A stretch of DNA of 64,000 nucleotides from assembly GCF_000427335.1 (NCBI RefSeq), contig NZ_ATMR01000095.1, positions 1 through 64,000 of the forward strand, given 5' to 3'. Source of the DNA: Winogradskyella psychrotolerans RS-3 (GTDB lineage Bacteria; Bacteroidota; Bacteroidia; Flavobacteriales; Flavobacteriaceae). Every line of letters starts with the position of its first letter. Position 1 is the stretch's first letter. This document shows positions 3,837 through 19,415 of this stretch, in pieces. A program made the position numbers and the translations under genes. The notes under the pieces were generated by a model, which was not told where the DNA came from, made no database searches, and worked only from the letters and a program-made list of their open reading frames with translations.

Positions 3837-5124
3837 TTATCTTTTATCAATAGATTTAAAATCTCTATGAGTTTCTCCTATGTATAGTTGTCTTGGACGA
3901 CCAATAGGTTCATTACGCATACGCATCTCTTTCCATTGAGCAATCCAACCTGGTAAACGACCCATAGCGAACATTACAGTAAACATTTCTACCGGAATTC
4001 CCATAGCTCTATAAATAATACCAGAGTAAAAATCTACATTTGGATATAATTTTCTATCCACAAAGTAAGGATCTTCTAATGCTTCTTTTGCTAAGCCTTT
4101 AGCGATATCTAAGATAGGATCTTCAATACCTAAATCTGCTAATACTTCATCAGCTGCTTTCTTAATAATAAGAGCTCTAGGATCAAAGTTTTTATAGACT
4201 CTGTGACCAAAGCCCATTAAACGGAAAGGATCATTTTTATCCTTAGCTTTAGCCATATACTTCTTAGTATCACCACCATCAGCTCTAATAGCTTCAAGCA
4301 TTTCTAAAACGGCTTGGTTAGCACCACCATGAAGTGGTCCCCAAAGTGCCGAAATACCAGATGCCAATGATACAAATAAACCAGCATGAGAAGAACCAGC
4401 AATTCTTACTGTAGAAGTAGAACAGTTTTGTTCATGATCTGCATGTAAAATTAAAAGTTTATCTAAGGCATTTACTAAAATTGGATTTTGTTCGTAATCA
4501 CCACTTGGGCTTTTAAACATCATCTTTAATAAATTCTCTACATAACCCAATTTATTATCTCCGTAATCTAAAGGAAGACCATTCTTTTTACGTAATGTCC
4601 AAGCGACTAAAACAGGGAATTTAGCTAAAATTCTAACAATAGCTTTATACATTTCCTCTTCAGAACTAACATCTACTGTAGATGGGTAAAAATGCGGTAA
4701 GCGCACTAGTTAAAGAAGATAGCACTCCCATTGGATGTGCAGATTTAGGAAATGCATCCAAAATCTTTTTAATATCATCATCAACAACTGAATGTGCTTT
4801 AATATCGGCATCAAATTTTGTTAATTGCTCTTTCGTTGGTAATTCACCGAAAATAAGAAGGAACACGACTTCTAAAAAACTACCTTTCTCAGCTAATTCT
4901 TCAATAGAATATCCTCTATATCTTAAAATACCTTTTTCACCATCTAGAAACGTAATAGCACTTTCACAACTTCCTGTATTTTTATAGCCCGGATCTAAGG
5001 TAATAACACCTCCTGTTGAACCTCTTAAACTTTTAATATCAATAGCGACTTCTTTTTCTGTTCCAGTTATGATAGGAAATTCATACTTCTCGCCATTAAT
5101 TTCTAATGTAGCTTTATCTGACAT
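3837..5124 (-). CDS. gltA: Citrate synthase, split by a one-base insertion
   Basis: Condenses oxaloacetate and acetyl-CoA at the entry of the citric acid cycle. The protein is read in two frames: residues 1-145 from 5124 down to about 4690, then the rest from about 4688 to 3837. Removing one A from the A5 run at 4688-4692 (T5 on the coding strand) restores a 428-residue protein of normal length. The catalytic residues are present in the reconstructed protein: His265 in W-G-P-L-H-G-G, His307 in G-F-G-H-R-V-Y, and Asp364 in N-V-D-F-Y-S-G. Because the remainder is so well conserved, I regard the shift as a sequence error rather than a lost enzyme. The gene stands alone between a divergent outer-membrane gene and its own terminator. 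Confidence 0.93.
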
Positions 5125-6173: not shown

Positions 6174-7469
6174 CTAATTTCGGTTTAGAATTTCCCTAAA
6201 CTGATAAAAGAAACGTTCTATTAATCTTAAGTCTTCAGTAATAATCTCTGCAGTGCCTCTCATTTCTTGTTTAAACTCTATGTCTTTATTATAGGAAGTA
6301 ATCATTTTCTCAGGCAACGAAACATCAATAAAATACAAACCTTCTTTATCTGGAATTAATGATATGTTTTTCACTTTTCCGTTTAACACACCAAATTCAG
6401 TATCTGGATAGTTTTCTAATTTTACATTTACCTTTTGCCCAATTTTAATTTTACCAGAATTTTGTGCTGGTGTCTTTAGCTTTGCAATATATGCTGCATT
6501 CTCATTTGGAATGATAGTAAACACCAAATCTCCTTGATTAACGGTTTGATTGGTGTCCCAATAATTTAAAAAAGAAACCTTACCATTAATATTTGAGCTT
6601 AACACATATTGAAACTCCCAATCTTTAACGGCTTTCTTGAGTTGATTAAAGGATTGAATTACATTTTTAAGTAAGGTCATTTCTTCTTTAACACGATTGA
6701 TTTCTGTTCCTTTTGAAGTCATGTTCGCATTACTGATACCTTCTCTAATTTGAGAAATTGAGGCTTCAAAATTTTTAAAGTTACGCTCAGCTTGCGCGTA
6801 TTGCAATTGCTTGTTTTCGTATTCTTGCGCCGAAATCACTCCTTTTTCAAATAAGGTGGTTTGCCTGTTTAAATCTTTTAAATTGAATTCTAGTTCGGTT
6901 TTGTTAAGGTCTCTTTGAGATTTTAAACTTTGTAAACGTCTATTTAATTCTGAAATGGAATATCGATTTGCTATAGCTTCATTAGAAAATGGTTCTAACT
7001 CTTTGTTTAATTTATATTGTATATAACTGTTCTCAAATAATGCATATTGCGATTCTATATCTCCTAAAAATAATATGGGTAAACTGTCTAGTGGAAAATA
7101 AAACGATTTACTATTTACTGTGATGGTATCAATCACAGATTTTAGTATAAAAACATCTTTATAATTAGCTGTGTTTTCTAAAATGGCTAAAGATTGATTT
7201 TCTGTTACAACTTCGTTATCTGAAACTAGAATAGTATTCAACTTTCCTGTAATTTTAGCATATTCTTTTTGTGGTGGCACTTGTGTGGTTACCAAAGCTT
7301 CAGAAACAATAATATCTGGATATTTTACAAACCAAGAAATACCCAATAACATCAGAATTAAAAATAGGAACAAGACATTTCCCCAACGTATCATCCAATG
7401 TGGTACTCTGGTGAGTATTTCTTGTACTTCTTCGCTTCTTAGTTGTATGTTGTCTAGTTTGTTTTCCAT
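6174..7469 (-). CDS. HlyD-family membrane fusion protein (peptide exporter adaptor)
   Basis: Periplasmic adaptor for the peptidase-ABC exporter encoded upstream. The 431 residues begin with a short cytoplasmic tail, one membrane segment near residues 31-48, a first lipoyl-like half ('ITGKLNTILVSDNEVV'), a long coiled-coil hairpin of roughly residues 165-270, the second lipoyl half ('INGKVSFLNYWDTNQTVNQG') and a beta-barrel region. It is the last gene of the minus-strand cluster, separated from the exporter by a 229-bp repeat element. No TolC-like gene lies in the window, so an outer-membrane partner must come from elsewhere, or the peptides are released in the periplasm. Confidence 0.92.
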   Translation of the reverse strand: MENKLDNIQLRSEEVQEILTRVPHWMIRWGNVLFLFLILMLLGISWFVKYPDIIVSEALVTTQVPPQKEYAKITGKLNTILVSDNEVVTENQSLAILENTANYKDVFILKSVIDTITVNSKSFYFPLDSLPILFLGDIESQYALFENSYIQYKLNKELEPFSNEAIANRYSISELNRRLQSLKSQRDLNKTELEFNLKDLNRQTTLFEKGVISAQEYENKQLQYAQAERNFKNFEASISQIREGISNANMTSKGTEINRVKEEMTLLKNVIQSFNQLKKAVKDWEFQYVLSSNINGKVSFLNYWDTNQTVNQGDLVFTIIPNENAAYIAKLKTPAQNSGKIKIGQKVNVKLENYPDTEFGVLNGKVKNISLIPDKEGLYFIDVSLPEKMITSYNKDIEFKQEMRGTAEIITEDLRLIERFFYQFREILNRN

Positions 7470-7491
7470 TTATTTCATTGTATTCAATCAA

Positions 7492-7720
7492 AAAACACCC
7501 CTAAAGTCCCCTCAAGGGGACAATTGTACGATTAAAATTTATTTTTATATTAAACTTTATAAATGCAATAATGCTTATTTTGAGCTTACATTAATTTGTA
7601 AGCATCAAAAAAAATATTTTGTTTTTAACCTATTCTCTAAAGGGACATTTTAAAAAAATCTTTTAGATTTTTTTCCGCAACAGCGAGACTGTCCCTTTGA
7701 GGGGACTTTAGGGGTGTTTT
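7492..7720. mobile_element. MITE-like element with about 31-bp terminal inverted repeats
   Basis: The left end (7492-7522, starting AAAACACCCCTAAAGTCCCC) and the right end (7690-7720) are inverted copies that match at 30 of 31 positions by eye. The 229-bp element holds no convincing gene; the small open frames crossing it are of low complexity. A further partial copy of the end motif, AAAGGGACATTTTA, lies inside at about 7639-7652. It sits between the exporter and the HlyD gene, so it is transcribed with them unless it stops transcription. Confidence 0.75.
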
Positions 7721-7736
7721 AAAAAAATTTGAATGT

Positions 7737-9929
7737 CTAGTTCCCCAATTCTAACTGATTCTTTACCAAATGAAAGTAATTCCCTTTCTGCTTCACCAAA
7801 GCCTCATGATTCCCAACTTCTACAATTTTTCCTTTATCTAAAACCACTATTTGATGTGCGTTTTTTACAGTACTTAATCTGTGTGCGATTACTACAACGG
7901 TTTTATCTTCGAAAAAGGTGTTTAGTTTTTCCATAATTACTTTTTCATTATTGGCATCTAAAGCCGATGTAGCTTCATCAAAGAATAAGAAATTTGGGTT
8001 TTTATAAACTGCCCTAGCGATTAATAACCTTTGTTTTTGGCCTGTGCTAACGCCTACACCTTCCATTCCAATTTTGGTATTGTAACTTAATGGTAAACTC
8101 TCTATAAACTCTTTAATATTAGCCACATCTACTGCATGTGCTAATTTCTTTTTATCGACATAATCTTCGCCAACCGCAATATTATTGGCTATAGTATCAT
8201 TAAATATATAACCTTCTTGCATCACCACTCCACATTGATGCCTCCATGTTTTTTGAGATACGTTTTGTAAATCGTGGTTTCCAATTTTTATTTGTCCGCT
8301 ATTTGGGTCATAAAATTTCAGTAATAATTTCATCAAGGTAGTTTTTCCACTTCCACTGACTCCAACAATTGCCGTTACTTTATTAGATGGAATGGTTAAG
8401 TCTAAATCTTGTAATACCATTTGTTCTGAACCAATATACCTAAACGAGACTTTAGATAATTCTAAATTAGCATCTAAAGGAATGTCTGTAATTTTCTCAG
8501 CATCTTGTTGTTCTTCGTCTTCTTTATTGTGGATTTCGGCTAAACGCTCTAAAGATATTTTAGCATCTTGGACTTCTCTAATAAAGTTAATGAGTTGTGC
8601 AATTGGCGAATTTAATTGCCCAACGATATAACTTATAGCTAACATCATACCTAAAGTAATTTCACCATCGATGACCAATTTTGCGGATAAAACTGTTATT
8701 AATATATTCTTAACTTCATTGATAAAACCTGAACCCACACTTTGGTATTGTTCCAATGCCAAACCTTCAATAGAGACTTTAAACAAACGTGCTTGTACAA
8801 ACTCCCAAGACCAACGTTTTTGTTTTTCTGCGTTGTGTAATTTTATTTCTTGCATGCCATTGATGAGTTCAATGACCTTACTTTGTTCTTGGCTTACTAC
8901 AGAAAAACGTTTATAATCTAAATCTCTACGTTTTTTAAGAAAAATGATAATCCATAAAAAATACAGAAAACTACCCGTTAAAAATATACCAAACAACATT
9001 AAATTATAATATGCCAATACAAAACTAAACACCAATAAATTAACCATAGAAAACAGCACATTTAAAGATGATGTAGTTAAAATGCGCTCTATACGCTTGT
9101 GGTCATTGATACGCTGAAGAATATCACCTGTCATTCGCGTATCAAAAAACGCAATAGGCAAATTCATTAACTTAATAAAGAAATCTGAAACTAAAGAAAT
9201 ATTGATACGTGTACTAAGATGTAACAAGATCCAACTTCTAATCACCTCAATGGCTGTTCTGCCAATAAACAAAGCTAATTGGGCAAATAAGATTAAGTAG
9301 ATAAAATGAATGTCTTGGTTTTTAATACCTACATCTACTATACTTTGAGTTAAAAAAGGAAAGATGAGTTGTAGTAAACTGGCTGCAATTAAACCAATGA
9401 CTAATTGCCATAAGAAGCGTTTGTATTTGAAAAGGTATTTGGATAAAAAAATGAAGCCGAATTCTTTTTTATCGGTATCGAAATCTGAGTTGTAAAATTT
9501 AGCTGTAGGCTCTAATAATAATGCTATACCTTCTTCGGTTTGATCTGTAGCGTTATTACCTATCCAATGTTTTAAAAATTCTTCTTTATTATATTTAAGT
9601 AAACCATGTGCTGGATCTGAGATGTAAAAAGCTCCTTTCTTTATCTTGTATAAAACTGCGTAATGGTTTTTATTCCAATGTAGAATGCAAGGTAGAGGAG
9701 CCTCTTCAATACGCTCTAAAGTAAGTTTAACTCCTAGACTTCTAAATCCTAATTTTTCAGATGCTTCGCTTAAACCTAAAAGACTACTACCAATTCTAGT
9801 GGTTTCACTTATGGCTCGAAGCTTTTGAATGGATATAGTTCTATTATAGAACTTAGCTATTATCTTTAAACAAGTTGGTCCGCAGTCTTTTGCATCCCTT
9901 TGTTTGTAATGCGGAAAGTTTTTTAGCAT
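7737..9929 (-). CDS. Peptidase-containing ABC transporter (C39 protease-exporter)
   Basis: Cleaves double-glycine leader peptides in the cytoplasm and exports the core peptide. The 730 residues contain a C39 protease (about 1-135) with Gln10, catalytic Cys16 in D-C-G-P-T-C, His89 in N-K-H-Y-A-V and Asp105 in S-D-P-A-H. An ABC membrane domain follows (about 160-450). The ATPase domain has Walker A at 523-531 (G-V-S-G-S-G-K-T-T), a slightly unusual signature V-S-T-G-Q at 627-631, Walker B L-F-F-D-E at 648-652 and switch His683. All residues needed for cleavage and transport are present. Its natural substrates are the three GG-leader peptides encoded upstream in the same cluster (inferred). Confidence 0.96.
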   Translation of the reverse strand: MLKNFPHYKQRDAKDCGPTCLKIIAKFYNRTISIQKLRAISETTRIGSSLLGLSEASEKLGFRSLGVKLTLERIEEAPLPCILHWNKNHYAVLYKIKKGAFYISDPAHGLLKYNKEEFLKHWIGNNATDQTEEGIALLLEPTAKFYNSDFDTDKKEFGFIFLSKYLFKYKRFLWQLVIGLIAASLLQLIFPFLTQSIVDVGIKNQDIHFIYLILFAQLALFIGRTAIEVIRSWILLHLSTRINISLVSDFFIKLMNLPIAFFDTRMTGDILQRINDHKRIERILTTSSLNVLFSMVNLLVFSFVLAYYNLMLFGIFLTGSFLYFLWIIIFLKKRRDLDYKRFSVVSQEQSKVIELINGMQEIKLHNAEKQKRWSWEFVQARLFKVSIEGLALEQYQSVGSGFINEVKNILITVLSAKLVIDGEITLGMMLAISYIVGQLNSPIAQLINFIREVQDAKISLERLAEIHNKEDEEQQDAEKITDIPLDANLELSKVSFRYIGSEQMVLQDLDLTIPSNKVTAIVGVSGSGKTTLMKLLLKFYDPNSGQIKIGNHDLQNVSQKTWRHQCGVVMQEGYIFNDTIANNIAVGEDYVDKKKLAHAVDVANIKEFIESLPLSYNTKIGMEGVGVSTGQKQRLLIARAVYKNPNFLFFDEATSALDANNEKVIMEKLNTFFEDKTVVVIAHRLSTVKNAHQIVVLDKGKIVEVGNHEALVKQKGNYFHLVKNQLELGN

Positions 9930-9952
9930 TTAACAATTTTTATTTAAAACTA

Positions 9953-11353
9953 CTACCAAAACTTATGATTCTTAACATCCTTTAATTTACGCAAAAACTG
10001 AGGCTCCTGCGGATGGTAAAATGCTTGGTCTATTAAATTCATATCCTTATCTATTAAGATATATCTTGGGATGGATTGCATTTCGATAAATTTCATGAAT
10101 TCCTTAGTGTCACTATCAGTTTCATCTAGCCAATATGAAATTGACTGCCCTAATTGTTTTGTTTTAATCCTCCATTTCTCTTTATCTTTTTCTTTATCTA
10201 TACTGATGCTTATTACGGATACATTGTTTGGCATGTCAATTTCTTTCATGGTTTTGACACCTTTTATACATGGTGCGCACCATGTGGCCCAAAAATCAAT
10301 TAAATAATAATCTGTTTGATTTTGTTTAATGATATTTGTAAAATCAATTGATTCATCCGATTTACCAAAAAACTGAAGTTGAGACAAATTCTTTTTAAAA
10401 TCCTCATTGTCTATTGGCTCAATTTCCTTGTCAATTATAATTTTATTATTAGAATATAAATTAGTTTTCTTAAGCCATTTTGTTGCTGCCGGATATTTAT
10501 CATTACCTTTATTATCCTCAAATCTTAAAAAAGAAAAAACACCTATAGATAACAGATTAATATATTCTTCAGAAAAATTTATGATATTTAAATTTTTATA
10601 ATCAAAAATATTTATTCTATTTTCAACATAACTAAAAAGCAATCTCCTTAAGGTTTTACTAGCAATTGGATCTGACAAAGTTTTAATAAAATGATCTACT
10701 TTTTCGCTTAAAGGGTTTATCATTTGTAGTTTTTCAAAATAATAAATATCATTTAATTGAACCTTTTTTGTGTTATTTTTTTCAGTATATAAGTTATTGT
10801 AAAAAAGATATAATGAATCTAACTCCTTTTGATAGATTTCCTTGTTTTCAGTTTGAAAAATTTTTGATCTTAATCTTCTATAGTTTTCTGTTATAGAATC
10901 TATATTTGAACTATTATGCTTGAAAATATATTTTTCTGAATCATATTCTAAAACCAGTCTAGAATTTCCTTTCGAAATTAAATAATTTTGCTTTATATTT
11001 TCAATTTTATTTTGACCAGAAATATATACACCATACCCTACAACCATTGAACTATAAGCACTAGACAGAACATGAGTTACTCTTCTTTCTTCGTGCTTTT
11101 CATTGTTAAAAGTTAGTGAATAATTATGTAATAAAGCATCAGGGACATTAATAATTGCCCTACCATCTTGATTAAAATTTACTGATATATATATAGAATC
11201 ATTTTCTATATTAATTTTATTCGAGATTTCCTCTTTTACTATTTCTTTATTATTTTTTTTACAATTAAACAATAAAGCTAGTAACAAAAGAAGTAACAAG
11301 CTGTACAGCTTGTTACCCCAAAATTTGGCATTATGTTTAATAATTTTAATCAT
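9953..11353 (-). CDS. TlpA-like thioredoxin lipoprotein (copy 3)
   Basis: Predicted lipoprotein with a C-terminal TlpA/ResA-type thioredoxin domain. I choose the ATG at 11353, four bases after the stop of the peptide gene; it gives a signal peptide ending in the lipobox L-A-L-L-F-N-C. Upstream in-frame ATGs would overlap the peptide gene by about 55 bases. The thioredoxin motif W-C-A-P-C has its cysteines at about 359 and 362 of 466, and the cis-proline loop is S-I-P-R-Y. The middle of the protein resembles the helical region seen in Bacteroidota TlpA proteins. It is a close paralogue of copy 2, nearly identical over the last 55 residues. It probably acts on the cysteines of the neighbouring peptide in the periplasm (inferred). 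Confidence 0.88.
   Translation of the reverse strand: MIKIIKHNAKFWGNKLYSLLLLLLLALLFNCKKNNKEIVKEEISNKINIENDSIYISVNFNQDGRAIINVPDALLHNYSLTFNNEKHEERRVTHVLSSAYSSMVVGYGVYISGQNKIENIKQNYLISKGNSRLVLEYDSEKYIFKHNSSNIDSITENYRRLRSKIFQTENKEIYQKELDSLYLFYNNLYTEKNNTKKVQLNDIYYFEKLQMINPLSEKVDHFIKTLSDPIASKTLRRLLFSYVENRINIFDYKNLNIINFSEEYINLLSIGVFSFLRFEDNKGNDKYPAATKWLKKTNLYSNNKIIIDKEIEPIDNEDFKKNLSQLQFFGKSDESIDFTNIIKQNQTDYYLIDFWATWCAPCIKGVKTMKEIDMPNNVSVISISIDKEKDKEKWRIKTKQLGQSISYWLDETDSDTKEFMKFIEMQSIPRYILIDKDMNLIDQAFYHPQEPQFLRKLKDVKNHKFW
11293..11316 (-). promoter_or_regulatory. Perfect 24-bp palindrome at the start of tlpA copy 3
   Basis: A perfect palindrome (half GTAACAAGCTGT) lies 42 bases after the peptide stop and inside codons about 13-21 of the following TlpA gene. 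In RNA it is a strong hairpin that could protect the 3' end of the peptide message or lower translation of the TlpA gene. Equivalent hairpins follow the other two peptide genes. Confidence 0.6.
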
Positions 11354-11357
11354 AAAA

Positions 11358-11612
11358 TTATTGACCAAAACCATCATGTTCACAATCATAATGACAACCA
11401 CTGGTTTCACCATTAGTTATATCATCAACACATGCATTATTTGCGGCACCTGAAGCACCTGAATCGCTAGAAGAAAAACTTCTTAAGATAAGCATATATG
11501 ACGAGCCGTCGGAATGCGTAATAATACATTTTTGTGCACCACCACTTACGTTCTCTAACTGTTTTTTACCAAGCACAGTAACTCCTTCTAAATTTAAAAT
11601 GTTTTGTAACAT
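11358..11612 (-). CDS. Double-glycine leader peptide precursor 3 (four Cys)
   Basis: An 84-residue precursor. Residues 1-25 form a leader of the Bacteroidota type (L-N-L-E-G-V-T-V-L-G-K-K...N-V-S-G-G) with cleavage expected after Gly25, leaving a 59-residue core. The core has four cysteines at 29, 61, 73 and 77 and is rich in Ser, Gly and Ala; it ends in C-H-Y-D-C-E-H-D-G. The pattern of Cys and the C-x-Y-D-C-x-H-D-G end are shared with precursor 2, which suggests two disulfides. The gene is followed at once by a TlpA-like gene. Whether the product is a bacteriocin, a signal or something else cannot be told. Confidence 0.85.
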   Translation of the reverse strand: MLQNILNLEGVTVLGKKQLENVSGGAQKCIITHSDGSSYMLILRSFSSSDSGASGAANNACVDDITNGETSGCHYDCEHDGFGQ

Positions 11613-11617
11613 AATTT

Positions 11618-11671
11618 TAATATTTAATTGTTAAAAAATACTTGAACCATTATAGACACTCAAGTTGTGTC
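11618..11671 (-). promoter_or_regulatory. Conserved leader before peptide 3 with competing hairpins
   Basis: The stretch directly upstream is almost identical to that before peptide 2. On the minus strand it reads GACAC-AACTTGA-GTGTC and then ACTTGA, 14 bases, TCAAGT followed by ATTTTTT. The two stems (11655-11659 with 11667-11671; 11640-11645 with 11660-11665) cannot form together, and the second looks like a weak terminator. TATAAT is also present, so part of this may be a promoter instead. Confidence 0.4.
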
Positions 11672-11699
11672 GTTTCCTTATATCTTTCCGATTAGAATT

Positions 11700-13082
11700 T
11701 TACCAATACTTATGATTCTTAACATCTTTTAACTTTGACAAAAACTGAGGCTCTTGTGGATGATAAAATGCTTGGTCTATTAAATTCATACCTTTATCTA
11801 TTAAGATATATCTTGGGATAGATTGCATTTCGATAAATTTTATGAATTCCTTAGTGTTACTATCTGTTTCATCTATCCAATAAGAAAGAGATTGCTCTAA
11901 TTCTTTAGTCTTAGTTTTCCATTTCTGTTTATCCTTCTCTTTATCTACACTTATACTAATTACCTTTATGTTTTTCGGTAACTGCATATTATTCATTATT
12001 TTAACGCCTTTTATACATGGTGCACACCACGTCGCCCAAAAATCTAACAAATAATAACTACTAGGGTTTTGCTTGATGACTTGAGCTATACTCAAATCAT
12101 TTTGCTCGGTATCAGCTAAGATTAGTTTATGTATTTTTGTTTTGAATAAATTACTGTCTAAAGGTGTGATCTTTTTCTTGATATGTAAAGAGTCCTTTTT
12201 GTAAAAGTCTGTGGTTTTTAACCAATCAATTGCTGATTGATATTTTTTGTCTCTTTTATTATCTGGGTCTTTTAAAAAATTATAGTGTCCTATTGCTATA
12301 AGTTCTAAATATTTTTTTCCATATTTCTTTTCATTAAGTGTGTTGTAGTCAAACATCTTAATTCTTGTCTTTGTATAATTATATAGCAACGAATACAATT
12401 CTTTACTAGCTACAGGATCAATCGTTCTTTTTAGAAAATTATCAACTTCTTCATTAGTTGAATCTAAATTCTGTAATTTATTATAATAATATATATCATT
12501 ATATTGTAACAAGCCGCTTTTATTTTCAGATGAATACTTTTGCACAAATTTTCTATACAACGTGTCTAATTTTAATATTGATTTTTTTTCATTGCTTTTT
12601 GATACATCCCATTTTTCATTTACTAGAGATTTATAATTTTCAAAAACATAATCAATATTGTTCATGCTTTTTGAAAAAACATAATTATCAGCAAGGAATG
12701 TCAATTTAAGAGTATCCGTTTTATCCGTTAAAAGATAAGCTTGAGTAATTTTTTGAAATTCATTATTGTTATACACCAACCCTTTATATTTAATAACCTT
12801 ATACTTCTCTGTGATAGGTATTTTTTTTATGATTGAGGTGCTATCGTTTGTCTCACTTTTAAAACTTAAGAAATTATTATTTAAATAATCATCAGGTATA
12901 TTAAATCCTACCTCACCTACTCCGATAAATTCAATAGACACTACTATTGAGTCTTTTTGGGTCGTATTGTTTTTTTCAACATAAACTTCTCTCTCTTTTT
13001 CTTGAACACATGAGAAGAAAAGCAAGAGAATAAACTGTAAACCCATATAAGATTTACAGTTTAAGTTTTTTATTCTATTCAT
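11700..13082 (-). CDS. TlpA-like thioredoxin lipoprotein (copy 2)
   Basis: Paralogue of copy 3, with the same layout: lipoprotein signal ending F-I-L-L-L-F-F-S-C, a long variable middle, and a TlpA-type domain with W-C-A-P-C (cysteines at about 353 and 356 of 460) and S-I-P-R-Y. I use the ATG at 13082, just after the stop of peptide 2 at 13096; the longer frame to 13142 would overlap the peptide gene and lacks a signal peptide. The last 55 residues are almost the same as in copy 3, while the middle has diverged. Likely role: reduction or shuffling of disulfides in the partner peptide in the periplasm (inferred). Confidence 0.88.
   Translation of the reverse strand: MNRIKNLNCKSYMGLQFILLLFFSCVQEKEREVYVEKNNTTQKDSIVVSIEFIGVGEVGFNIPDDYLNNNFLSFKSETNDSTSIIKKIPITEKYKVIKYKGLVYNNNEFQKITQAYLLTDKTDTLKLTFLADNYVFSKSMNNIDYVFENYKSLVNEKWDVSKSNEKKSILKLDTLYRKFVQKYSSENKSGLLQYNDIYYYNKLQNLDSTNEEVDNFLKRTIDPVASKELYSLLYNYTKTRIKMFDYNTLNEKKYGKKYLELIAIGHYNFLKDPDNKRDKKYQSAIDWLKTTDFYKKDSLHIKKKITPLDSNLFKTKIHKLILADTEQNDLSIAQVIKQNPSSYYLLDFWATWCAPCIKGVKIMNNMQLPKNIKVISISVDKEKDKQKWKTKTKELEQSLSYWIDETDSNTKEFIKFIEMQSIPRYILIDKGMNLIDQAFYHPQEPQFLSKLKDVKNHKYW
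13031..13063 (-). promoter_or_regulatory. Hairpin inside the start of tlpA copy 2
   Basis: An 11-bp perfect stem (TAAACTGTAAA with TTTACAGTTTA, 11-base loop) lies 33 bases after the peptide 2 stop, within codons about 7-17 of the TlpA gene. Its sequence differs from the hairpin at 11293-11316 though the genes are paralogues, so the structure rather than the sequence seems kept. Confidence 0.55.
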
Positions 13083-13095
13083 AGATTTACTAATT

Positions 13096-13347
13096 TTAAC
13101 CTGGCCCATCATGTGAACAATCATAAAAACATCTATCGGCATTTTCTAATAGTTGACCACATGCTTGTTGCGCAGCTGCTGTTTGCGACTCAGCAGTTTC
13201 ACCTACACTTCCTCCCATAATGATATACTCTTCAGAATCATTATTAGTTAAAGTGGTTAGCCTACAGCTGCCTCCACCATTTATCGCGCCTTGCTGTGTT
13301 TTACCGAGCACAGTAACTCCTTCTAAATTTAAAATGTTTTGTAACAT
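13096..13347 (-). CDS. Double-glycine leader peptide precursor 2 (four Cys)
   Basis: An 83-residue precursor whose first 16 residues are the same as in precursor 3. Cleavage is expected after Gly25 in A-I-N-G-G, leaving a 58-residue core with cysteines at 28, 63, 73 and 77, ending C-F-Y-D-C-S-H-D-G-P-G. The leader is almost unchanged from precursor 3 while the core differs strongly except at the cysteines and the end, the usual pattern for exported peptides with a shared transporter. It lies between a VKOR-fusion gene and a TlpA gene. Confidence 0.86.
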   Translation of the reverse strand: MLQNILNLEGVTVLGKTQQGAINGGGSCRLTTLTNNDSEEYIIMGGSVGETAESQTAAAQQACGQLLENADRCFYDCSHDGPG

Positions 13348-13352
13348 AATTT

Positions 13353-13406
13353 TAATATTTAATTGTTAAAAAATACTTGAACCGTTATAGACACTCAAGT
13401 TATGTC
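13353..13406 (-). promoter_or_regulatory. Conserved leader before peptide 2
   Basis: Near-identical to the leader before peptide 3 (only a few changes in about 55 bases). The ACTTGA...TCAAGT stem with its ATTTTTT tail (13375-13380 with 13395-13400) is intact; the alternative outer stem is weakened by one change (GACAC against ATGTC). Homology ends just beyond, which marks one edge of the duplicated peptide-TlpA unit. Confidence 0.4.
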
Positions 13407-13410
13407 TCAT

Positions 13411-14997
13411 TCATGCATGAATATTATTAATCTCTTTTTTAGTTTTTAACATCTCTTGTTCTAAGATTGGTTCAACAAAATGCTCAATGTCTTTAAAGCT
13501 ATAATTTTTTGGAAAAAGTTTTTTGTTAATTAAAATTATAGGTGTGCTTTCTATCCCTTGTTTTAAGCACCAATATATTTGTTGACTTAGTATTTTATTA
13601 TACTTTAAATCTTTACATTTCCCCCATTTTTTAGTCCATATTTTTGTATTGCCATTGCTATACCAATCATTAAAAGCGTTTAAAAAAACTTTTGTATCGT
13701 TTTCAAAATACAATTGCAGTAAGCGTTCTGAGATTATAGTTTTATTGTCTGCTCTATCTTTATTTGGAACTAAAAACCTAAAGTTTAACTGAATGCTATC
13801 CTTATACTTTTGTAATAAATCTATATATGTTTTATGAGCTTCGATACAGCTTTTGCATAAAGGATTGGTAATAATTGTAAGTTTTATGATTGGGTTTTCA
13901 GCTCCTAGTACAATTTGCGGTATAGTACAATCTTCTGTGTCAAGTTGTGTTAACGCGTTATAATAAGGAATAAACAATTTATGATTTCTTCTAAAACTTA
14001 GATTTTCAATTTCGAGCGTAATATTTTTTTGTTCTAATAATAATAGTGGTTTAAGTGCTAACCAACCTATTATTGTTATAGCTAAAACTGTTGTTAGCAA
14101 TAAAATATCGCTGTATTGAAATAGAGTCGTTTCATAAGTTGCTAAGAGTGTAGAAAATTGTAATACCAAAACAAAAGCCACACCTAAACATAAAGGACAC
14201 CACTTTTTAATCGTAAAATATTGTTGGTAAATTGAATATAAAACTACAGGTAACGCAATTGCTGAGATAATTAAAGCCAATATACTAAAAGGCCGTAAAA
14301 GGCTATAGACAGTAATAACTGTAAAATACATTATAACCGTATCACTAAGGTCTATAGTTTTAAAAACCTTGGCACTTTTTGAGTTAAGTACATTTACGCA
14401 ATTCGTAATTGTTGTTATTTTACAGTATTTGGAAGCAAAGGTTTGTTGCCCAATTTTCTCCTTAATAATAAGATACCCTAAACCGAGACCAATAAGCGAT
14501 AATGCAAAATATGTAGTTAACAATATTGAGTTTGTGACGAGAAATACATATCCCAAAAATGATAAGGAAAACAATAGCAGAAAAACTTTAGTAATAGAAT
14601 CCTTTGATAAAGAAGCTTTACCAATCGCTTTGTTTTCTTCAATGGCAATTATAAAACCTGTCCAGTCGTTTAAAAATTGATTCTCTGAGAGCGTTACTAT
14701 TTTCTCTTCACTTAACTGTATTTTTATGGTGTTGTTAGTTTCTTTAGATGCTAAAGCAATATATTCCGTTTTACCATTACTTACTTGTGCAATAAAATGA
14801 TGAGGCAGTTGCTCTAATGCGGTTTTTGGAACATTAGCCGCAATGTGTTCTACATTAAAATAATCTAAAGTATTTGTAAAACTTAAAACTAAATTATCTG
14901 AATCACTAAGAAGCCGCAATGCCAGTTGCTGCTTACTAATAGAATACTTATATTCTTTTAGAAGCTGTGCAAGTAAAAAAACAGATGCATCTTTCAA
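13411..14997 (-). CDS. C39-like / VKOR / thioredoxin-fold fusion oxidoreductase (copy 2)
   Basis: Membrane protein of 528 residues in three parts. Residues 1-115 resemble the C39-like domain of peptide exporters but have no catalytic Cys. Residues about 135-320 are a VKOR core with loop cysteines Cys192 and Cys200 and the active pair Cys267-P-L-Cys270, in several membrane segments. Residues about 340-528 are a thioredoxin/DsbA-like domain with Cys381-K-S-Cys384. VKOR homologues oxidise thioredoxin partners and pass electrons to quinone, so this should drive disulfide formation. The N-terminal domain could hold the GG leader while the core is oxidised; that is my inference. The adjacent peptide has four cysteines. 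Confidence 0.88.
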   Translation of the reverse strand: MKDASVFLLAQLLKEYKYSISKQQLALRLLSDSDNLVLSFTNTLDYFNVEHIAANVPKTALEQLPHHFIAQVSNGKTEYIALASKETNNTIKIQLSEEKIVTLSENQFLNDWTGFIIAIEENKAIGKASLSKDSITKVFLLLFSLSFLGYVFLVTNSILLTTYFALSLIGLGLGYLIIKEKIGQQTFASKYCKITTITNCVNVLNSKSAKVFKTIDLSDTVIMYFTVITVYSLLRPFSILALIISAIALPVVLYSIYQQYFTIKKWCPLCLGVAFVLVLQFSTLLATYETTLFQYSDILLLTTVLAITIIGWLALKPLLLLEQKNITLEIENLSFRRNHKLFIPYYNALTQLDTEDCTIPQIVLGAENPIIKLTIITNPLCKSCIEAHKTYIDLLQKYKDSIQLNFRFLVPNKDRADNKTIISERLLQLYFENDTKVFLNAFNDWYSNGNTKIWTKKWGKCKDLKYNKILSQQIYWCLKQGIESTPIILINKKLFPKNYSFKDIEHFVEPILEQEMLKTKKEINNIHA

Positions 14998-15058
14998 ATC
15001 CTTAATCTTTTAAGAAGCTTAAAATTAAGGCATTAAAAACAAAAGCTAGTACACAAAA

Positions 15059-15076
15059 GCTTACTTTAAAGTAAGC
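15059..15076 (-). terminator. Palindrome after the response-regulator remnant
   Basis: GCTTACTT-TAAAGTAAGC is a perfect 18-bp palindrome followed on the minus strand by TTTTGTG. It lies 12 bases beyond the stop of the response-regulator fragment and may be its old terminator, or a hairpin in the leader of the next gene. Confidence 0.4.
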
Positions 15077-15088
15077 AAAAACGGAAAT

Positions 15089-15175
15089 CTAAATAAAACC
15101 ATTTGTTCTAGCAGCCAACACTAAATCTCTATCGCTATTACTCTCAATATTAAATATATGTTTATTGACAATACT
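15089..15175 (-). pseudogene. Remnant of a response-regulator 3' end
   Basis: Read on the minus strand this encodes N-I-E-S-N-S-D-R-D-L-V-L-A-A-R-T-N-G-F-I and a stop. The intact response regulator at 18732-19415 ends N-I-D-S-N-S-D-R-D-L-V-L-A-A-K-A-K-G-F-I. The bases just after both stop codons also match (GGAAATCTAAATA and GTAAGCAAAAACG read on the plus strand). So a second copy once stood here; only its last 25 or so codons remain. It separates two modules of the peptide cluster. Confidence 0.8.
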
Positions 15176-15220
15176 CCTATATACAAATAGATTTATTTTT
15201 TTTAAGAGGGAAAATTATTT

Positions 15221-16684
15221 CTATTCTGATATTTCAATTTTATTAATAATATCATTGAATTCCAAAGTATCATTTGGAGAGGGCGAATTAATCAAAACAA
15301 CATTATTATTATAATCTAAAATAGCATAATGAGGAATAGTACTCACGTTAAAAAATGCTATTAAATGATTGCTTTGAGTTTTACTAATCACATATTGATT
15401 TTTATCCATCCCAAATTCTTGTAATTCGGCAACTTTTTTTCTCCAACTTTCTTGATTCTCGTCTATTGAAAAATAGTAGAATTCTACATTTTTATTCTGA
15501 ATTAATTTTTTTCTAAACTCATGACTACTTTTAATTTCTTTAATACATGGTGCACACCAACTTGCCCAAAAATCAATTATTTTAATTGTATTGCCCTGAT
15601 TTTTTAAAATATCTTTTAATGTAATTCTTTCTCCATCAATATCTAATAAAATAGAACCGTAAACATTTTCTGCTAATCGATTATTAATCTTATTTAATCG
15701 TTCATTTATTCTCTCTAACACAACTTTATATTTTTCTTCTTTTATTTGCGGCAAGTAAATCATAATTTTATCTTGTAGGTTCTTTGAATTTTTTGTAATC
15801 GAATGACTATCAAATTCAAATATCATTTTTGTAATCGCATATTCTTTAGTGTTACCAACCAAATTTTTATTGATTAAATCTAATTGAAAATCTAGTGATT
15901 CTATTGAATATGTATTATTGCCAAATTTTTCTTCAGATACAATATTTAGATATTTTGTTAATGCAAGATAAAAATTCACATTATCATCTTGGTCATTTCT
16001 ATTAAAATCATTGATAGATATACCTTTTAAATATTCTGTATAATTAGTTATGGCGCCTTTAGGAATGCTGTTCTGATTTAATATCCCATTGATATACTGA
16101 AATTTAAAAACATCTTTTATTTTATTATAAAACAAATCTGAAACATTTTTGTTTTTTGCATACTGATCTAAAAACTGTTGCTTATTTTTATAATAATTTT
16201 CATGAACTTTCTTATATTCAGAAATTCCAAGTTGCTCATTATATCTTGGGTAATTTAGGTTTAAATTATAAAGTTCTTTAAAAAAATTATAATGGGCTTC
16301 ATTATTGCCATTAAAAGTTATTATGCTATTATCCAATTTATAACTAAGCGTATCACCTGGAGTTACATATATAAAAAACGCAATTGAGCTAGGTTTAAAA
16401 CTAGCAAACCTAAATAGTCTTGGTGATTCCAATTTAAAACTAAAGTTTAAATTTTCATGTTCATTCTTTGCTTTAAGCAAAAAAGACTGTTTATTAAATT
16501 CAATATGGGTTTCATCAAGCAATACTGATTCTATTAAAGTGTCTCCTGGTTGTTCTGCAAACAAGTAAACTTGCTTTGAAGTTTCTATTAGTTTTGATCT
16601 TTCTTTTTTTAGATTAAAAACAAGAATCCCAATAACAATTACGACAAGTAAAATTGTTAAGACTCTTTTTGGGGCTCTTATCAT
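15221..16684 (-). CDS. TlpA-like thioredoxin protein, membrane anchored (copy 1)
   Basis: C-terminal TlpA/ResA-type domain with W-C-A-P-C (cysteines at about 377 and 380 of 487) and the cis-proline motif S-T-I-P-H-Y. The N-terminal part has the 'YVTPGDTLSY' and 'FNGNNEAHYNFF' type of motifs common in Bacteroidota TlpA proteins. I choose the ATG at 16684, which puts a membrane anchor at residues about 8-24; the longer frame starts from a GTG at 16738 that lies inside a hairpin. It is more distant from copies 2 and 3 than they are from each other. Its partner would be peptide 1, encoded just upstream. Confidence 0.87.
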   Translation of the reverse strand: MIRAPKRVLTILLVVIVIGILVFNLKKERSKLIETSKQVYLFAEQPGDTLIESVLLDETHIEFNKQSFLLKAKNEHENLNFSFKLESPRLFRFASFKPSSIAFFIYVTPGDTLSYKLDNSIITFNGNNEAHYNFFKELYNLNLNYPRYNEQLGISEYKKVHENYYKNKQQFLDQYAKNKNVSDLFYNKIKDVFKFQYINGILNQNSIPKGAITNYTEYLKGISINDFNRNDQDDNVNFYLALTKYLNIVSEEKFGNNTYSIESLDFQLDLINKNLVGNTKEYAITKMIFEFDSHSITKNSKNLQDKIMIYLPQIKEEKYKVVLERINERLNKINNRLAENVYGSILLDIDGERITLKDILKNQGNTIKIIDFWASWCAPCIKEIKSSHEFRKKLIQNKNVEFYYFSIDENQESWRKKVAELQEFGMDKNQYVISKTQSNHLIAFFNVSTIPHYAILDYNNNVVLINSPSPNDTLEFNDIINKIEISE

Positions 16685-16729
16685 AATATTATTTTTTTTG
16701 TGAAATTTATATAAAAATACGTTTTTAAA

Positions 16730-16759
16730 TTTAGCCACCTTTTGCCAAAGATGGCTAAA
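16730..16759 (-). promoter_or_regulatory. Strong hairpin between peptide 1 and its tlpA gene
   Basis: TTTAGCCA and TGGCTAAA pair perfectly, and the inner CTTT pairs with AAAG around a four-base loop: about 13 pairs in all. It starts about 15 bases after the peptide stop and is followed by an AT-rich run. It may end part of the transcripts or protect the peptide message from 3' decay. Confidence 0.65.
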
Positions 16760-16774
16760 TAAACAGTTAATAAA

Positions 16775-17014
16775 CTATGGTGTGAATTCTTTAGTTGGTG
16801 GGTCTAAAGGATTTGGATAATCACAACTGCAACAATTAACTCCCATTTGCCCTTCCTGTCTACAAGAAGCCCCAGTACTAGAACAGCCAGATACACCTTC
16901 AAGGTCGCCATTGTTACAAGTTACTTTACATACGCTTCCTGCTCCTCCACCTCCATTAATAGAGCGCATTTCACCTCTTGAAAGCTGCTCCTTTTTCAAA
17001 CTAAAATTTATCAT
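16775..17014 (-). CDS. Double-glycine leader peptide precursor 1 (seven Cys)
   Basis: A 79-residue precursor. The leader is short ('LKKEQLSRGEMRSINGG') with the Gly-Gly site at residues 21-22, followed by two more Gly. The core has seven cysteines at 29, 33, 44, 51, 61, 62 and 64, including a C-C-x-C group, and a Pro-rich C-terminus (P-N-P-L-D-P-P). The odd number means at least one Cys would be unpaired, or the peptide pairs with another chain. It is unlike peptides 2 and 3. It lies between its own VKOR-fusion gene (33 bases before) and TlpA gene. Confidence 0.83.
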   Translation of the reverse strand: MINFSLKKEQLSRGEMRSINGGGGAGSVCKVTCNNGDLEGVSGCSSTGASCRQEGQMGVNCCSCDYPNPLDPPTKEFTP

Positions 17015-17047
17015 AATAATTAGTATTAAATTATTGCCTACTCTTTT

Positions 17048-18645
17048 TTAGCTTTTCGGCATCGCTATTTTATATTTTTTAACGTACAACGATTTGTCAT
17101 CCAACAGTTCTTCTATATAAAATGGTAAATCGGCAATATCATATTCTTTTGGGTAACGGTAACCATTTATAAATAAGCATGGTGTAAAGTTGAGACTGTT
17201 TTCTTCAAACCAACTATTCTGTTTGTCTAAAAGTATTTCACCTTCACTCGTATTTATATTAATTTGATATTTATTTAACCATTTCTTATGCTCTTTTACT
17301 TGATACCAATAATCCATAGCTTCATAATAATGAGCATTACCTTTTTTTAATTTCAACTGTGTAATAGTAATAGCAAAATCTCTTAATATCAAATTATTTA
17401 GACTGGCATTATAAAAAATTGAAATATTTAGTTGTTGTTCATATTTATCTAATAAAGATTTGAGTAGATAGTGAGGTTCTTCACAAAATCCACAATATGG
17501 ACTGGTGATGATACTTATCTTTAAATTAGCATTTTTATTACCAAAAACTAATTTCGTTTCTGGGAGGTTATATCGATCTTCTGATGTTAAAAGCAATTTG
17601 AACGTATTATAATTCCTCTTAAACCTATTGGCTTTTAACTCAACAGTTTTTAAATCATTTACTTTTTTTAAGATTTTTTTTAATGGCAACCATACTGCTG
17701 TTAGTAGTGAGATTGTGGCGAAGAACAACAATATGCTAAGCAATCCTATATTAAAGCCAAAATTTGAATGTATTAAAATTACAGCAATAAACTCCAAAAT
17801 GACAACACCAATGATTGATAAACATATTGGACACCATTTTTTTTCGATATATTTTTGATAATACAAGGAGGCAATTATAACAGGTACCGAAAAGAGCAGC
17901 ACTACAATCTGTAATGAGAAATACGCAGAGTATAGATTTAAAAGCCCCATCAAGAACAACCCAACAAGTTGCGTAGAAAAGAAAAGGATGCCTAGATCGC
18001 TAAAGCTTATGGTATCAAAAAATTTCCATTCAGTTGAGTTAACTACAGTTTTACAACTGGTATTAGCTGTTACATTACAAAATTTATTGAAGAGTTCACT
18101 CTTTGTAATAATTAGATCTTTTAGTGCAGCTGTAGAAAATAACAGCCCTAAGATTGGCAATGTGTAGAACAATAGAAACCATTTTTTTGGAGCGGTCAAT
18201 ACTATAACTGCAATAATTAGTGCTATAGTAACTATTGGTATTATGTAATTGTATTTTGGCTTTGATTTCGCTTTTGGAACTATATTTTCATTCTCCACCA
18301 ATAATACAATATCGGTCCATAAAGCCTCAAAATCAGTTTTTGCTATTGAATTGTTCTCAACTCCATTAGAATATATAACAGTATCATCCTTTTTTTGAAC
18401 GTAGGATAAAAAATCTGAGTTACTCTTATTTAATCTTGCAAAAAATTTATTTGGCAATAATTCAATCTCTGACTTATTTACATTAAATGCACCATTCTTA
18501 ATGTTGAAGAATGTTAAAGTGTCGCTTAATGCTAAAAGCGTAGGGAAATCTGGATGCGAATTAAACTGAAAATTAAATTCTTTTTTATCGATATATATAT
18601 ATCTTCTGCTTCTAAATAATTAAAAAGTGATTTTATATTACTCAT
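17048..18645 (-). CDS. C39-like / VKOR / thioredoxin-fold fusion oxidoreductase (copy 1), frameshifted
   Basis: Same three-part layout as copy 2: a C39-like N-terminus without catalytic Cys, a VKOR core (loop pair C-N-V...S-C, active pair W-C-P-I-C) and a thioredoxin-fold domain with C-G-F-C. The continuous frame only begins near 18457 at a TTG. Upstream sequence in that frame encodes F-N-S-H-P-D-F-P-T-L-L-A-L-S-D-T, typical of the C39-like domain, and an ATG at 18645 (M-S-N-I-K-S-L-F-N-Y-L-E) supplies the start in another frame. The frames meet at an (AT)6 tract, 18591-18602; five units would give one ORF of about 531 residues, against 528 in copy 2. So the gene is off as written, by one dinucleotide. 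Confidence 0.82.
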
Positions 18646-18731
18646 ATAAGAAATTTATTACAATAAAATTAGAACAATGAGCATATTTTACAGGATACAA
18701 ATGCGCACAATAAGTAAGCAAAAACGGAAAT

Positions 18732-19415
18732 CTAAATAAACCCTTTGGCTTTAGCAGCCAAAACCAAGTCTCTATCACTATTACTATCAATATTAAATTT
18801 TCGTTTTAAAAGCCGTTTTCTCTTATCTATCGCAGATTTAGACAAATGCACTAACTTTAACAAATCTCTCATATTAGAGCCATTAGCAAGTTCTTTAAGT
18901 ATTATAAAATCATAAGTATCTAATTGAATATTATTGAGCGACTTTTGCTTAATAGCGTTTATTATAGTTTTGCTATAATGTGTTTCTCCTAATAGCACCT
19001 TATTGATAGCAATCATATAATTTGTAAAACCTACATCTTGCTTATTTAAAAAGCCCAAAGGATTATAGGCATTAATAGTCTGCCTAATTCTATGACTATT
19101 GGTATATGACGTAATCACCAATATCTTAGTATTTGGAAATTGTCCTCTAATGCATACACCCAAATCATCACCAGAATGTAAATTAAGTTGTGGTGCTGGT
19201 GGGAGGCTTAAATCTAAAATGATCAAATCTAAAGGTTTTGCAATAGAATAGCTTTGAATTTTTTGATGAGCGGTTTCGCAATCCCTAGCACTTTCGGTTT
19301 TAAAACACAACTTATCTGATTGATCTTGCATATATTGAAGTGTATTTATAACCGCTTCAATAATAATGGGATGGTCATCTATGATTAAGACGTTAACGGA
19401 TTTTTTATTCATCAA
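18732..19415 (-). CDS. Response regulator with receiver and HTH output domain
   Basis: Cytoplasmic transcription regulator of 227 residues. The receiver domain has the acidic pair Asp13-Asp14, phospho-acceptor Asp68 in L-I-I-L-D-L-S, Thr/Ser near 102 and Lys125. The C-terminal 60 residues ('YDFIILKELANGSNMRDLL' and 'LSKSAIDKRKRLLKRKF') look like a LuxR/NarL-type helix-turn-helix, somewhat diverged. It heads the peptide cluster on the same strand, so control of the cluster is likely. No sensor kinase gene is nearby. A decayed copy of its 3' end lies at 15089-15175. The start could also be the second Met. Confidence 0.87.
   Translation of the reverse strand: MMNKKSVNVLIIDDHPIIIEAVINTLQYMQDQSDKLCFKTESARDCETAHQKIQSYSIAKPLDLIILDLSLPPAPQLNLHSGDDLGVCIRGQFPNTKILVITSYTNSHRIRQTINAYNPLGFLNKQDVGFTNYMIAINKVLLGETHYSKTIINAIKQKSLNNIQLDTYDFIILKELANGSNMRDLLKLVHLSKSAIDKRKRLLKRKFNIDSNSDRDLVLAAKAKGFI

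What the first reader, a model, noticed from the sequence alone, without database searches (positions are those of the whole stretch)
6174..19415. Disulfide-peptide biosynthesis cluster: three GG-leader Cys-rich peptides with VKOR fusions, TlpA partners and a C39 exporter
Seen: three short Cys-rich precursors with Gly-Gly leaders, each followed by a TlpA-like gene; two C39-like/VKOR/thioredoxin fusions; one C39-ABC exporter; one HlyD; a response regulator, all on one strand. Known: C39 exporters cleave GG leaders, VKOR makes disulfides, TlpA reduces or shuffles them. Inference: a dedicated line in which a dead C39 domain docks the leader, VKOR oxidises the core, TlpA proofreads and the exporter secretes it. 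I see no radical-SAM, lanthionine or other modification enzyme, so disulfides may be the only maturation.
Basis: partly seen in the sequence, partly recalled or inferred. Interest (0 to 1): 0.85.

Follow-up and report, generated by a model that had tools for sequence, protein, structure and literature searches.

The report
Flavobacterial disulfide-peptide maturation and export cluster
A marine flavobacterium carries genes that make small cysteine-rich peptides, probably lock them with disulfide bonds and export them; similar clusters occur widely in its phylum, and the oxidising enzyme seems to sit in the membrane the other way round from its known relatives.

Summary
Window 6174-19415 (Winogradskyella) encodes three GG-leader Cys-rich precursors, each followed by a TlpA-like gene, two C39-like/VKOR/DsbA-like fusions, a C39-ABC exporter, HlyD and a response regulator, all on the - strand. 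It is not isolated: 328 relatives of the fusion were found; in 75 of 79 examined loci a leader-like small ORF lies beside it (307 sense, 6 antisense). Cores nearly always have an even Cys number (144 of 154 core clusters with three or more Cys), a strong sign of disulfide pairing. The fused C39 domain keeps the peptidase fold but not the catalytic Cys. TlpA partners mark a minority subtype (6 of 79 loci), yet core and TlpA N-domain diversify together. New here: loop charges in the fusions are reversed against unfused VKORs (canonical in 0 of 42 against 16 of 16), so oxidation is predicted on the cytoplasmic face, before export. No other VKOR and no DsbB was found in the genome. VKOR2 is 5'-broken and P3 has seven Cys. 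Activity and TlpA role are untested. Closest known: bacteroidetocins.

The parts
6174..7469 (-). HlyD-family adaptor
   Evidence: PF13437 E 4e-13; a 42-71% identical HlyD in 8 of 10 fetched same-genus regions other than W. costae
7737..9929 (-). C39-peptidase ABC exporter (catalytic motifs intact)
   Evidence: PF03412 E 4e-35, ABC_membrane, ABC_tran; DCG, NH and DP motifs; only ABC-type C39 in the genome
9953..11353 (-). TlpA1, lipoprotein-type N-terminus, variable N-domain + thioredoxin domain WCAPC
   Evidence: Thioredoxin_8 E 1.3e-10; type-A N-domain
11358..11612 (-). precursor P1, GG leader + 59-aa core with 4 Cys
   Evidence: relatives in L117, L118, L119, L107
11700..13082 (-). TlpA2, lipoprotein-type N-terminus
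13096..13347 (-). precursor P2, GG leader + 58-aa core with 4 Cys
13411..14997 (-). VKOR1: C39-like domain without catalytic Cys (1-125), extra hydrophobic helix 132-155, VKOR core, DsbA-like domain (349-515)
   Evidence: C192, C200, C267, C270, C381, C384 invariant in the 42-row alignment
15069..15155 (-). near-copy of the response-regulator gene's 3' end (repeat unit 2)
   Evidence: 88.5% over 87 bp to 18798-18712
15221..16684 (-). TlpA3, membrane-anchored, different N-domain
   Evidence: Thioredoxin_8 E 9e-11; no N-domain match to TlpA1/2
16775..17014 (-). precursor P3, GG leader + 57-aa core with 7 Cys
   Evidence: TIGR04149 only below its cut-off, E 0.0033
17048..18619 (-). VKOR2 fusion; open frame to 18619 but start codon (TTG) only at 18457; 5' part out of frame
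   Evidence: PF07884 E 1.2e-9; 523-codon open frame; DNA
18712..18798 (-). repeat unit 1 (3' end of response-regulator gene and following DNA)
18732..19415 (-). response regulator
   Evidence: PF00072 E 1.3e-8; a relative directly upstream of the fusion in 11 of 79 related loci

Best explanation
It is a production line for exported disulfide-bonded peptides (bacteriocin-like). The precursor's GG leader docks on the dead C39 domain of the VKOR fusion. The fusion's DsbA-like domain oxidises the core's cysteines and its VKOR core passes the electrons to membrane quinone. The fusion carries one extra hydrophobic helix in front of the VKOR core and reversed loop charges, so both soluble domains and the active site are predicted in the cytoplasm: disulfides are made before export. 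The C39-ABC protein then cuts after GG and, with HlyD (and an outer-membrane channel encoded elsewhere, assumed), secretes the core. The TlpA proteins are peptide-specific partners on the envelope side, either folding/export partners or self-protection. Shown by computation: gene set, folds, lost catalytic Cys, even Cys numbers, recurrence, core/TlpA co-diversification, charge reversal. Inferred: docking, oxidation of these peptides, side of the membrane, secretion, activity.
Against: Topology rests on the positive-inside rule; no experiment, and the AF2 monomer says nothing of orientation. The conserved lysines by CxxC may have another role and so bias the test, though the near-absence of K/R in the other loops does not depend on them. 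Leader docking is by fold only; no complex was modelled. His and Asp columns of the C39 triad are kept in 7 and 11 of 81 rows. Co-diversification of neighbours can come from linkage alone. C39-ABC is missing from 27 of 66 loci with >=8 kb downstream held; there the exporter presumably lies elsewhere. In W. costae the cluster lost its exporter yet keeps peptides. P3, and a group of 7-Cys cores in Dokdonia, break the even-Cys rule.
Confidence: 0.6

Rival explanations
1. Same line, but with canonical VKOR topology: the DsbA-like domain is periplasmic, the extra hydrophobic helix does not span or the C39-like domain is itself periplasmic, and oxidation follows translocation.
For: VKORs with solved structures and the bacterial VKORs studied in culture act outside the cytoplasm (recalled); the TlpA partners look like envelope proteins (sequences).
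Against: Canonical charge order in 0 of 42, 2 of 79 and 0 of 29 fusions; two hydrophobic segments before the loop Cys in 42 of 42 with the VKOR fold matching only from residue 157; a periplasmic leader-binding domain would meet no leader if the exporter cuts it inside.
Confidence: 0.25
2. The TlpA proteins are immunity proteins: each protects against its own peptide, so the units are toxin-immunity pairs.
For: Peptide-then-TlpA order; core and N-domain diverge together; a 2-kb block with the 3' end of VKOR1, P2 and most of TlpA2 is 99.6-100% identical to W. costae while chromosomal flanks are ~90%, so it moved recently; two type-A TlpA genes stand without a visible peptide (L120, L121) and one follows another TlpA in tandem (L117); no C39 was found in L121's genome.
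Against: In the bacteroidetocin study neither the thiol oxidoreductase nor the TM protein protected when expressed in trans, and deletion of the oxidoreductase attenuated the toxin (PMC6671954 section 7). The lone genes may be ordinary TlpA paralogues.
Confidence: 0.35
3. The fusion is the cell's general disulfide oxidase and merely lies near peptides.
For: No other VKOR and no DsbB was found in the genome.
Against: 58 of 68 same-genus genomes show no match to it; leader-like ORFs adjoin it in 75 of 79 loci; it carries a C39-fold domain.
Confidence: 0.05
4. The cysteines are not in disulfides but in another linkage or bind metal.
For: No mass data; modifying enzymes elsewhere in the genome were not searched for.
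Against: Even parity, an oxidase in the operon, no other modification enzyme by Pfam among the eleven genes.
Confidence: 0.06
5. In this particular genome the line, or at least the VKOR2-P3-TlpA3 cassette, is decaying and makes little or nothing.
For: VKOR2 5' end out of frame, P3 with 7 Cys, rearrangement scar; the sister cluster in W. costae lacks VKOR2-P3-TlpA3, exporter and HlyD and has a stop in the RR gene.
Against: VKOR1, P1, P2, TlpA1, TlpA2, exporter and HlyD are all open; P1 differs from W. costae by three synonymous changes only.
Confidence: 0.2

Closest known systems
Bacteroidetocins (PMC6671954: sections 7 and 8 read, other passages by search; PMC8546649: two passages)
   Same: Bacteroidota; GG-leader peptide with four Cys; gene order multi-TM protein, peptide, thiol oxidoreductase, C39-ABC; disulfides indicated by gel shift
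   Different: Leader 15 aa and core 42 aa there, leaders 22-25 and cores 57-59 aa here; the terms VKOR and C39 do not occur in that paper's main text and its four-gene region names no HlyD or regulator; several peptide-TlpA pairs per locus here. Sequence relation, and whether its five-TM protein is VKOR-like, were not tested
Emticicia oligotrophica plasmid pEMTOL02 cluster (RefSeq annotation)
   Same: VKOR-family protein - small ORF - TlpA units, a second VKOR-family protein, then peptidase-domain ABC and HlyD: the same architecture
   Different: Cytophagales plasmid, far diverged (23.8% identity); annotated gene by gene with no system named; its small ORFs were not checked for GG leaders
HlyB C39-like domain
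   Different: Part of the transporter there, of the oxidase here
VKOR of Aeropyrum pernix and work on topological plasticity of disulfide-forming enzymes (Hibender 2017, Hatahet & Ruddock 2013; titles seen only as reference-list entries)
   Same: By title, such oxidation can take place in the cytoplasm as well as outside
   Different: Not tied to a peptide or a C39 domain (recalled)

Membership tests
GG-leader peptides exported by C39-ABC (class II bacteriocin-like) | GG leader with conserved pattern | tested here: met
   P1-P3 leaders end in GG; over 307 ORFs L-12 in 292, K-10 in 272, E-8 in 214; the -7, -4, -2 and -1 letters are partly built in by the regex that chose them
GG-leader peptides exported by C39-ABC (class II bacteriocin-like) | C39-ABC exporter with catalytic motifs nearby | tested here: met
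   7737-9929
GG-leader peptides exported by C39-ABC (class II bacteriocin-like) | Antibacterial activity of the core | not testable with these tools
   -
Bacteroidetocin family | 15-aa leader, 42-aa core | tested here: not met
   leaders 22-25, cores 57-59 aa; paper's values
Bacteroidetocin family | sequence similarity to bacteroidetocins A/B | not tested
   no bacteroidetocin sequence was fetched
VKOR family | helical core with CxxC and loop Cys pair | tested here: met
VKOR family | canonical topology (active site outside the cytoplasm) | tested here: not met
   charge pattern reversed; a prediction, not a measurement
C39 peptidase (fused N-domain) | fold | tested here: met
C39 peptidase (fused N-domain) | Cys-His-Asp triad | tested here: not met
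   Cys column: T, S, gap, Q, N, P are the commonest of 81 rows (only the top six letters were printed), His kept in 7 and Asp in 11 rows; 2 of 80 have any Cys in the first 22 residues
TlpA/ResA-like thiol oxidoreductase | thioredoxin fold with WCxxC | tested here: met
TlpA/ResA-like thiol oxidoreductase | N-terminal domain of known fold | tested here: inconclusive
   nearly all listed matches cover 305-459 only; not folded alone

The most novel reading that the evidence does not exclude
A widespread bacterial family of topologically inverted VKOR oxidases, fused to a dead GG-leader-binding domain, makes disulfides in exported peptides inside the cytoplasm of ordinary mesophilic bacteria, one docked precursor at a time, before a C39-ABC transporter releases them; the enzyme can serve arrays of hypervariable Cys-rich peptides because it reads only the leader, while envelope TlpA proteins co-evolve with each core as its private partner.
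Probability: 0.4. Interest if true: 0.9.

Novelty: new variant of a known kind. Interest (0 to 1): 0.72.

Why it matters
It would give a leader-guided, genetically compact way to make disulfide-rich peptides in a reducing cytoplasm, explain how Bacteroidota without DsbB could make such peptides, point to hundreds of unstudied Cys-rich peptides (307 leader-like ORFs in 75 loci), and supply a natural case of membrane-protein inversion by gain of one helix. It also turns a vague RefSeq label ('vitamin K epoxide reductase family protein') into a testable enzyme-substrate pair.

Tried and rejected
Considered and dropped: rSAM-modified RiPP (TIGR04149 matches P3 only below its cut-off, and no rSAM gene is in the cluster); TlpA as a part of every cluster (6 of 79 loci); 'orphan TlpA in three genomes' (L118 turned out to have a peptide that my regex missed, leaving two). 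Parabacteroides L152 has separate C39-like and VKOR-Trx ORFs, but they overlap and may be one broken gene, so I do not use it for topology. I hoped to reach the bacteroidetocin five-TM gene through; no locus from them was identified as one. The TlpA2 N-domain has no clear fold match in the rows shown; one row (4yod) spans 159-455; it was not folded alone. Phmmer of the VKOR core alone against PDB: nothing.

My errors and losses: the TlpA1 and TlpA2 queries were out of frame (mended); TlpA statements rest and later, or on hits through TlpA3 or the WCxxC pattern. The leader regex misses P3 and L118's peptide, so peptide counts are lower bounds. The non-leader null is dominated by low Cys counts, so one half is the fairer yardstick for parity. 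Searches failed on script errors. In one search, 17 of 78 loci gave no VKOR signature by regex and were dropped, and duplicates were merged, leaving 29 fused and 20 unfused; the three unfused exceptions are two 145-aa ORFs (L177, L202) and L178, a frame-split fusion. In one search ten of 18 control loci were missed by a narrower regex and one duplicate merged; one search recovered all but L171 and merged L159. In one search the loops compared differ in length. L029 (W. costae) was left out of counts over 79 loci. Of 328 relatives only the 80 kept were examined. 'ABC-type C39' was judged by match position and frame length, not residue by residue.

Not in print, as far as searched: VKOR with double-glycine leader, C39 or bacteriocin (no paper; one paper, from its title and abstract on another subject) and Tenacibaculum + bacteriocin + disulfide (two, likewise), in the open-access library only; most subscription papers are not held. 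Papers seen only as passages: PMC10352776, PMC5306230, PMC12453122, PMC4460558.
Full report

Same genus. 10 of 68 genomes have the fusion, own genome included. Nine of these 10 have an ABC-type C39 and it lies in the same region as a fusion; of 10 genomes without the fusion that I tested (20 of 68 genomes in all were given to that call) one has a C39. The exception, W. costae, keeps RR (with a premature stop), VKOR1, P2, TlpA2, P1 and TlpA1 but has only a broken remnant of the exporter gene and no HlyD there; it also lacks the VKOR2-P3-TlpA3 segment between the two 87-bp repeats. In the ten other fetched same-genus regions (L019-L028) different GG-leader Cys-rich small ORFs are seen in 8, C39-ABC in 9 and HlyD in 8.

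Wider family. A pattern-and-tblastn scan of genome contigs found 328 relatives; the best 80 were kept, from Tenacibaculum, Aquimarina, Kordia, Bizionia, Dokdonia, Psychroserpens, Flagellimonas, Bacteroidales and others. Leaving out L029 (W. costae), 75 of 79 loci have a same-strand leader-like small ORF near the fusion: 307 sense, 6 antisense. Some Tenacibaculum loci hold more than ten. C39-ABC is in 43 of 79 loci, and in 39 of the 66 with at least 8 kb held downstream. In an even draw of the phylum 61 of 395 genomes match the profile, the weakest by the VKOR or C39 part alone.

Disulfides. Of 298 cores with three or more Cys, 263 have an even number; taking one per core cluster at 50% identity, 144 of 154 (binomial p 1e-31 against one half; clusters are not fully independent). 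Small ORFs without the leader in the same loci: 148 of 449 even. P1 and P2 obey (4 Cys); P3 (7) and a Dokdonia group with 7 do not. In the own genome no VKOR besides the two fusions and no DsbB was found.

Which side of the membrane. All 42 aligned fusions have two hydrophobic segments before the loop Cys; the nine unfused VKORs printed have one, and the VKOR fold in VKOR1 is matched only after the first. Mean K+R in TM2-3 / active-site loop / TM4-5 is 0.12 / 2.07 / 0.57 in 42 fusions and 3.94 / 0.06 / 2.88 in 16 unfused Bacteroidota VKORs. The canonical order is seen in 0 of 42 fusions and 16 of 16 unfused; in a wider regex-found set in 2 of 79 fusions; in a further set in 0 of 29 fused and 17 of 20 unfused (17 of 78 loci dropped for lack of a recognised signature, duplicates merged). 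By the positive-inside rule the fusions' active site, C39-like domain and DsbA-like domain face the cytoplasm. That puts the oxidase where the leader is still attached, which is what a leader-binding domain needs. It is a prediction, not a measurement.

TlpA partners. Only 6 of 79 loci carry a TlpA-like gene on the same strand within 5 kb downstream of the fusion, but the arrangement recurs: VKOR-[peptide-TlpA]x3-ABC-HlyD in L107 and, by annotation, the Emticicia plasmid. Cores of the type C...C...C.YDC..DG (P1, P2, L107 middle, L117, L118, L119) precede one TlpA N-domain type; CC.SC-type cores precede others. Over 12 pairs core and N-domain similarity correlate (Mantel r 0.88, p 1e-4; core against Trx domain 0.80; leader against N-domain 0.39) (L118 was found later and is not included). 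A 2-kb block with the 3' end of VKOR1, P2 and most of TlpA2 is 99.6-100% identical to W. costae while chromosomal flanks are ~90%, so this stretch moved recently. Linkage alone could give all this. Two type-A TlpA genes stand without a visible peptide (L120, L121), and no C39 was found in L121's genome. This fits immunity, but in the bacteroidetocin study the oxidoreductase did not protect and its deletion attenuated the toxin (PMC6671954 section 7). I leave the role open.

Comparison. It works like the bacteroidetocin system (PMC6671954, sections 7 and 8 read) but does not share its leader or core length, and sequence relation was not tested. RefSeq annotates the parts singly. I found no paper linking VKOR to GG-leader peptides in the open library. 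Verdict: a real, widespread, little-described variant of a known kind, with one surprising and testable feature, the predicted inverted oxidase.

Noticed in passing
window 3837-5124: Citrate synthase is split between two frames (ORFs 4666-5124 and 3837-4706) while W. costae has one 428-aa ORF (L017 14353-15639): pseudogene or sequencing error.
   Followed up: no
window 18590-18650: VKOR2's 5' end lies in another frame; the frames meet at a short AT run, so error, decay or switching are all possible.
   Followed up: partly
window 15069-15155 and 18712-18798: 87-bp direct repeat from the RR gene's 3' end flanks the VKOR2-P3-TlpA3 cassette, which W. costae lacks.
   Followed up: yes
window 11559-11671 and 13294-13406: 113-bp near-identical repeat (96.5%) covering the 5' leader and leader-peptide codons of P1 and P2.
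   Followed up: partly
L017 7146-13060: W. costae keeps precursor genes but has lost the exporter and HlyD there, and no ABC-type C39 was found in its genome.
   Followed up: yes
L035, L036, L038, L043, L093, L105: Tenacibaculum loci with more than ten different leader-like Cys-rich small ORFs around one VKOR fusion.
   Followed up: partly
L152 3987-6936: Parabacteroides distasonis record filed as plasmid, with separate C39-like and VKOR-thioredoxin ORFs beside two small hypothetical proteins and a 6-bladed beta-propeller; housekeeping neighbours suggest chromosomal DNA.
   Followed up: partly
L117 2252-5064: Two type-A TlpA genes in tandem after a single peptide.
   Followed up: no
L077, L094, L103: Dokdonia loci with runs of 7-Cys cores, a consistent exception to the even-Cys rule.
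   Followed up: no
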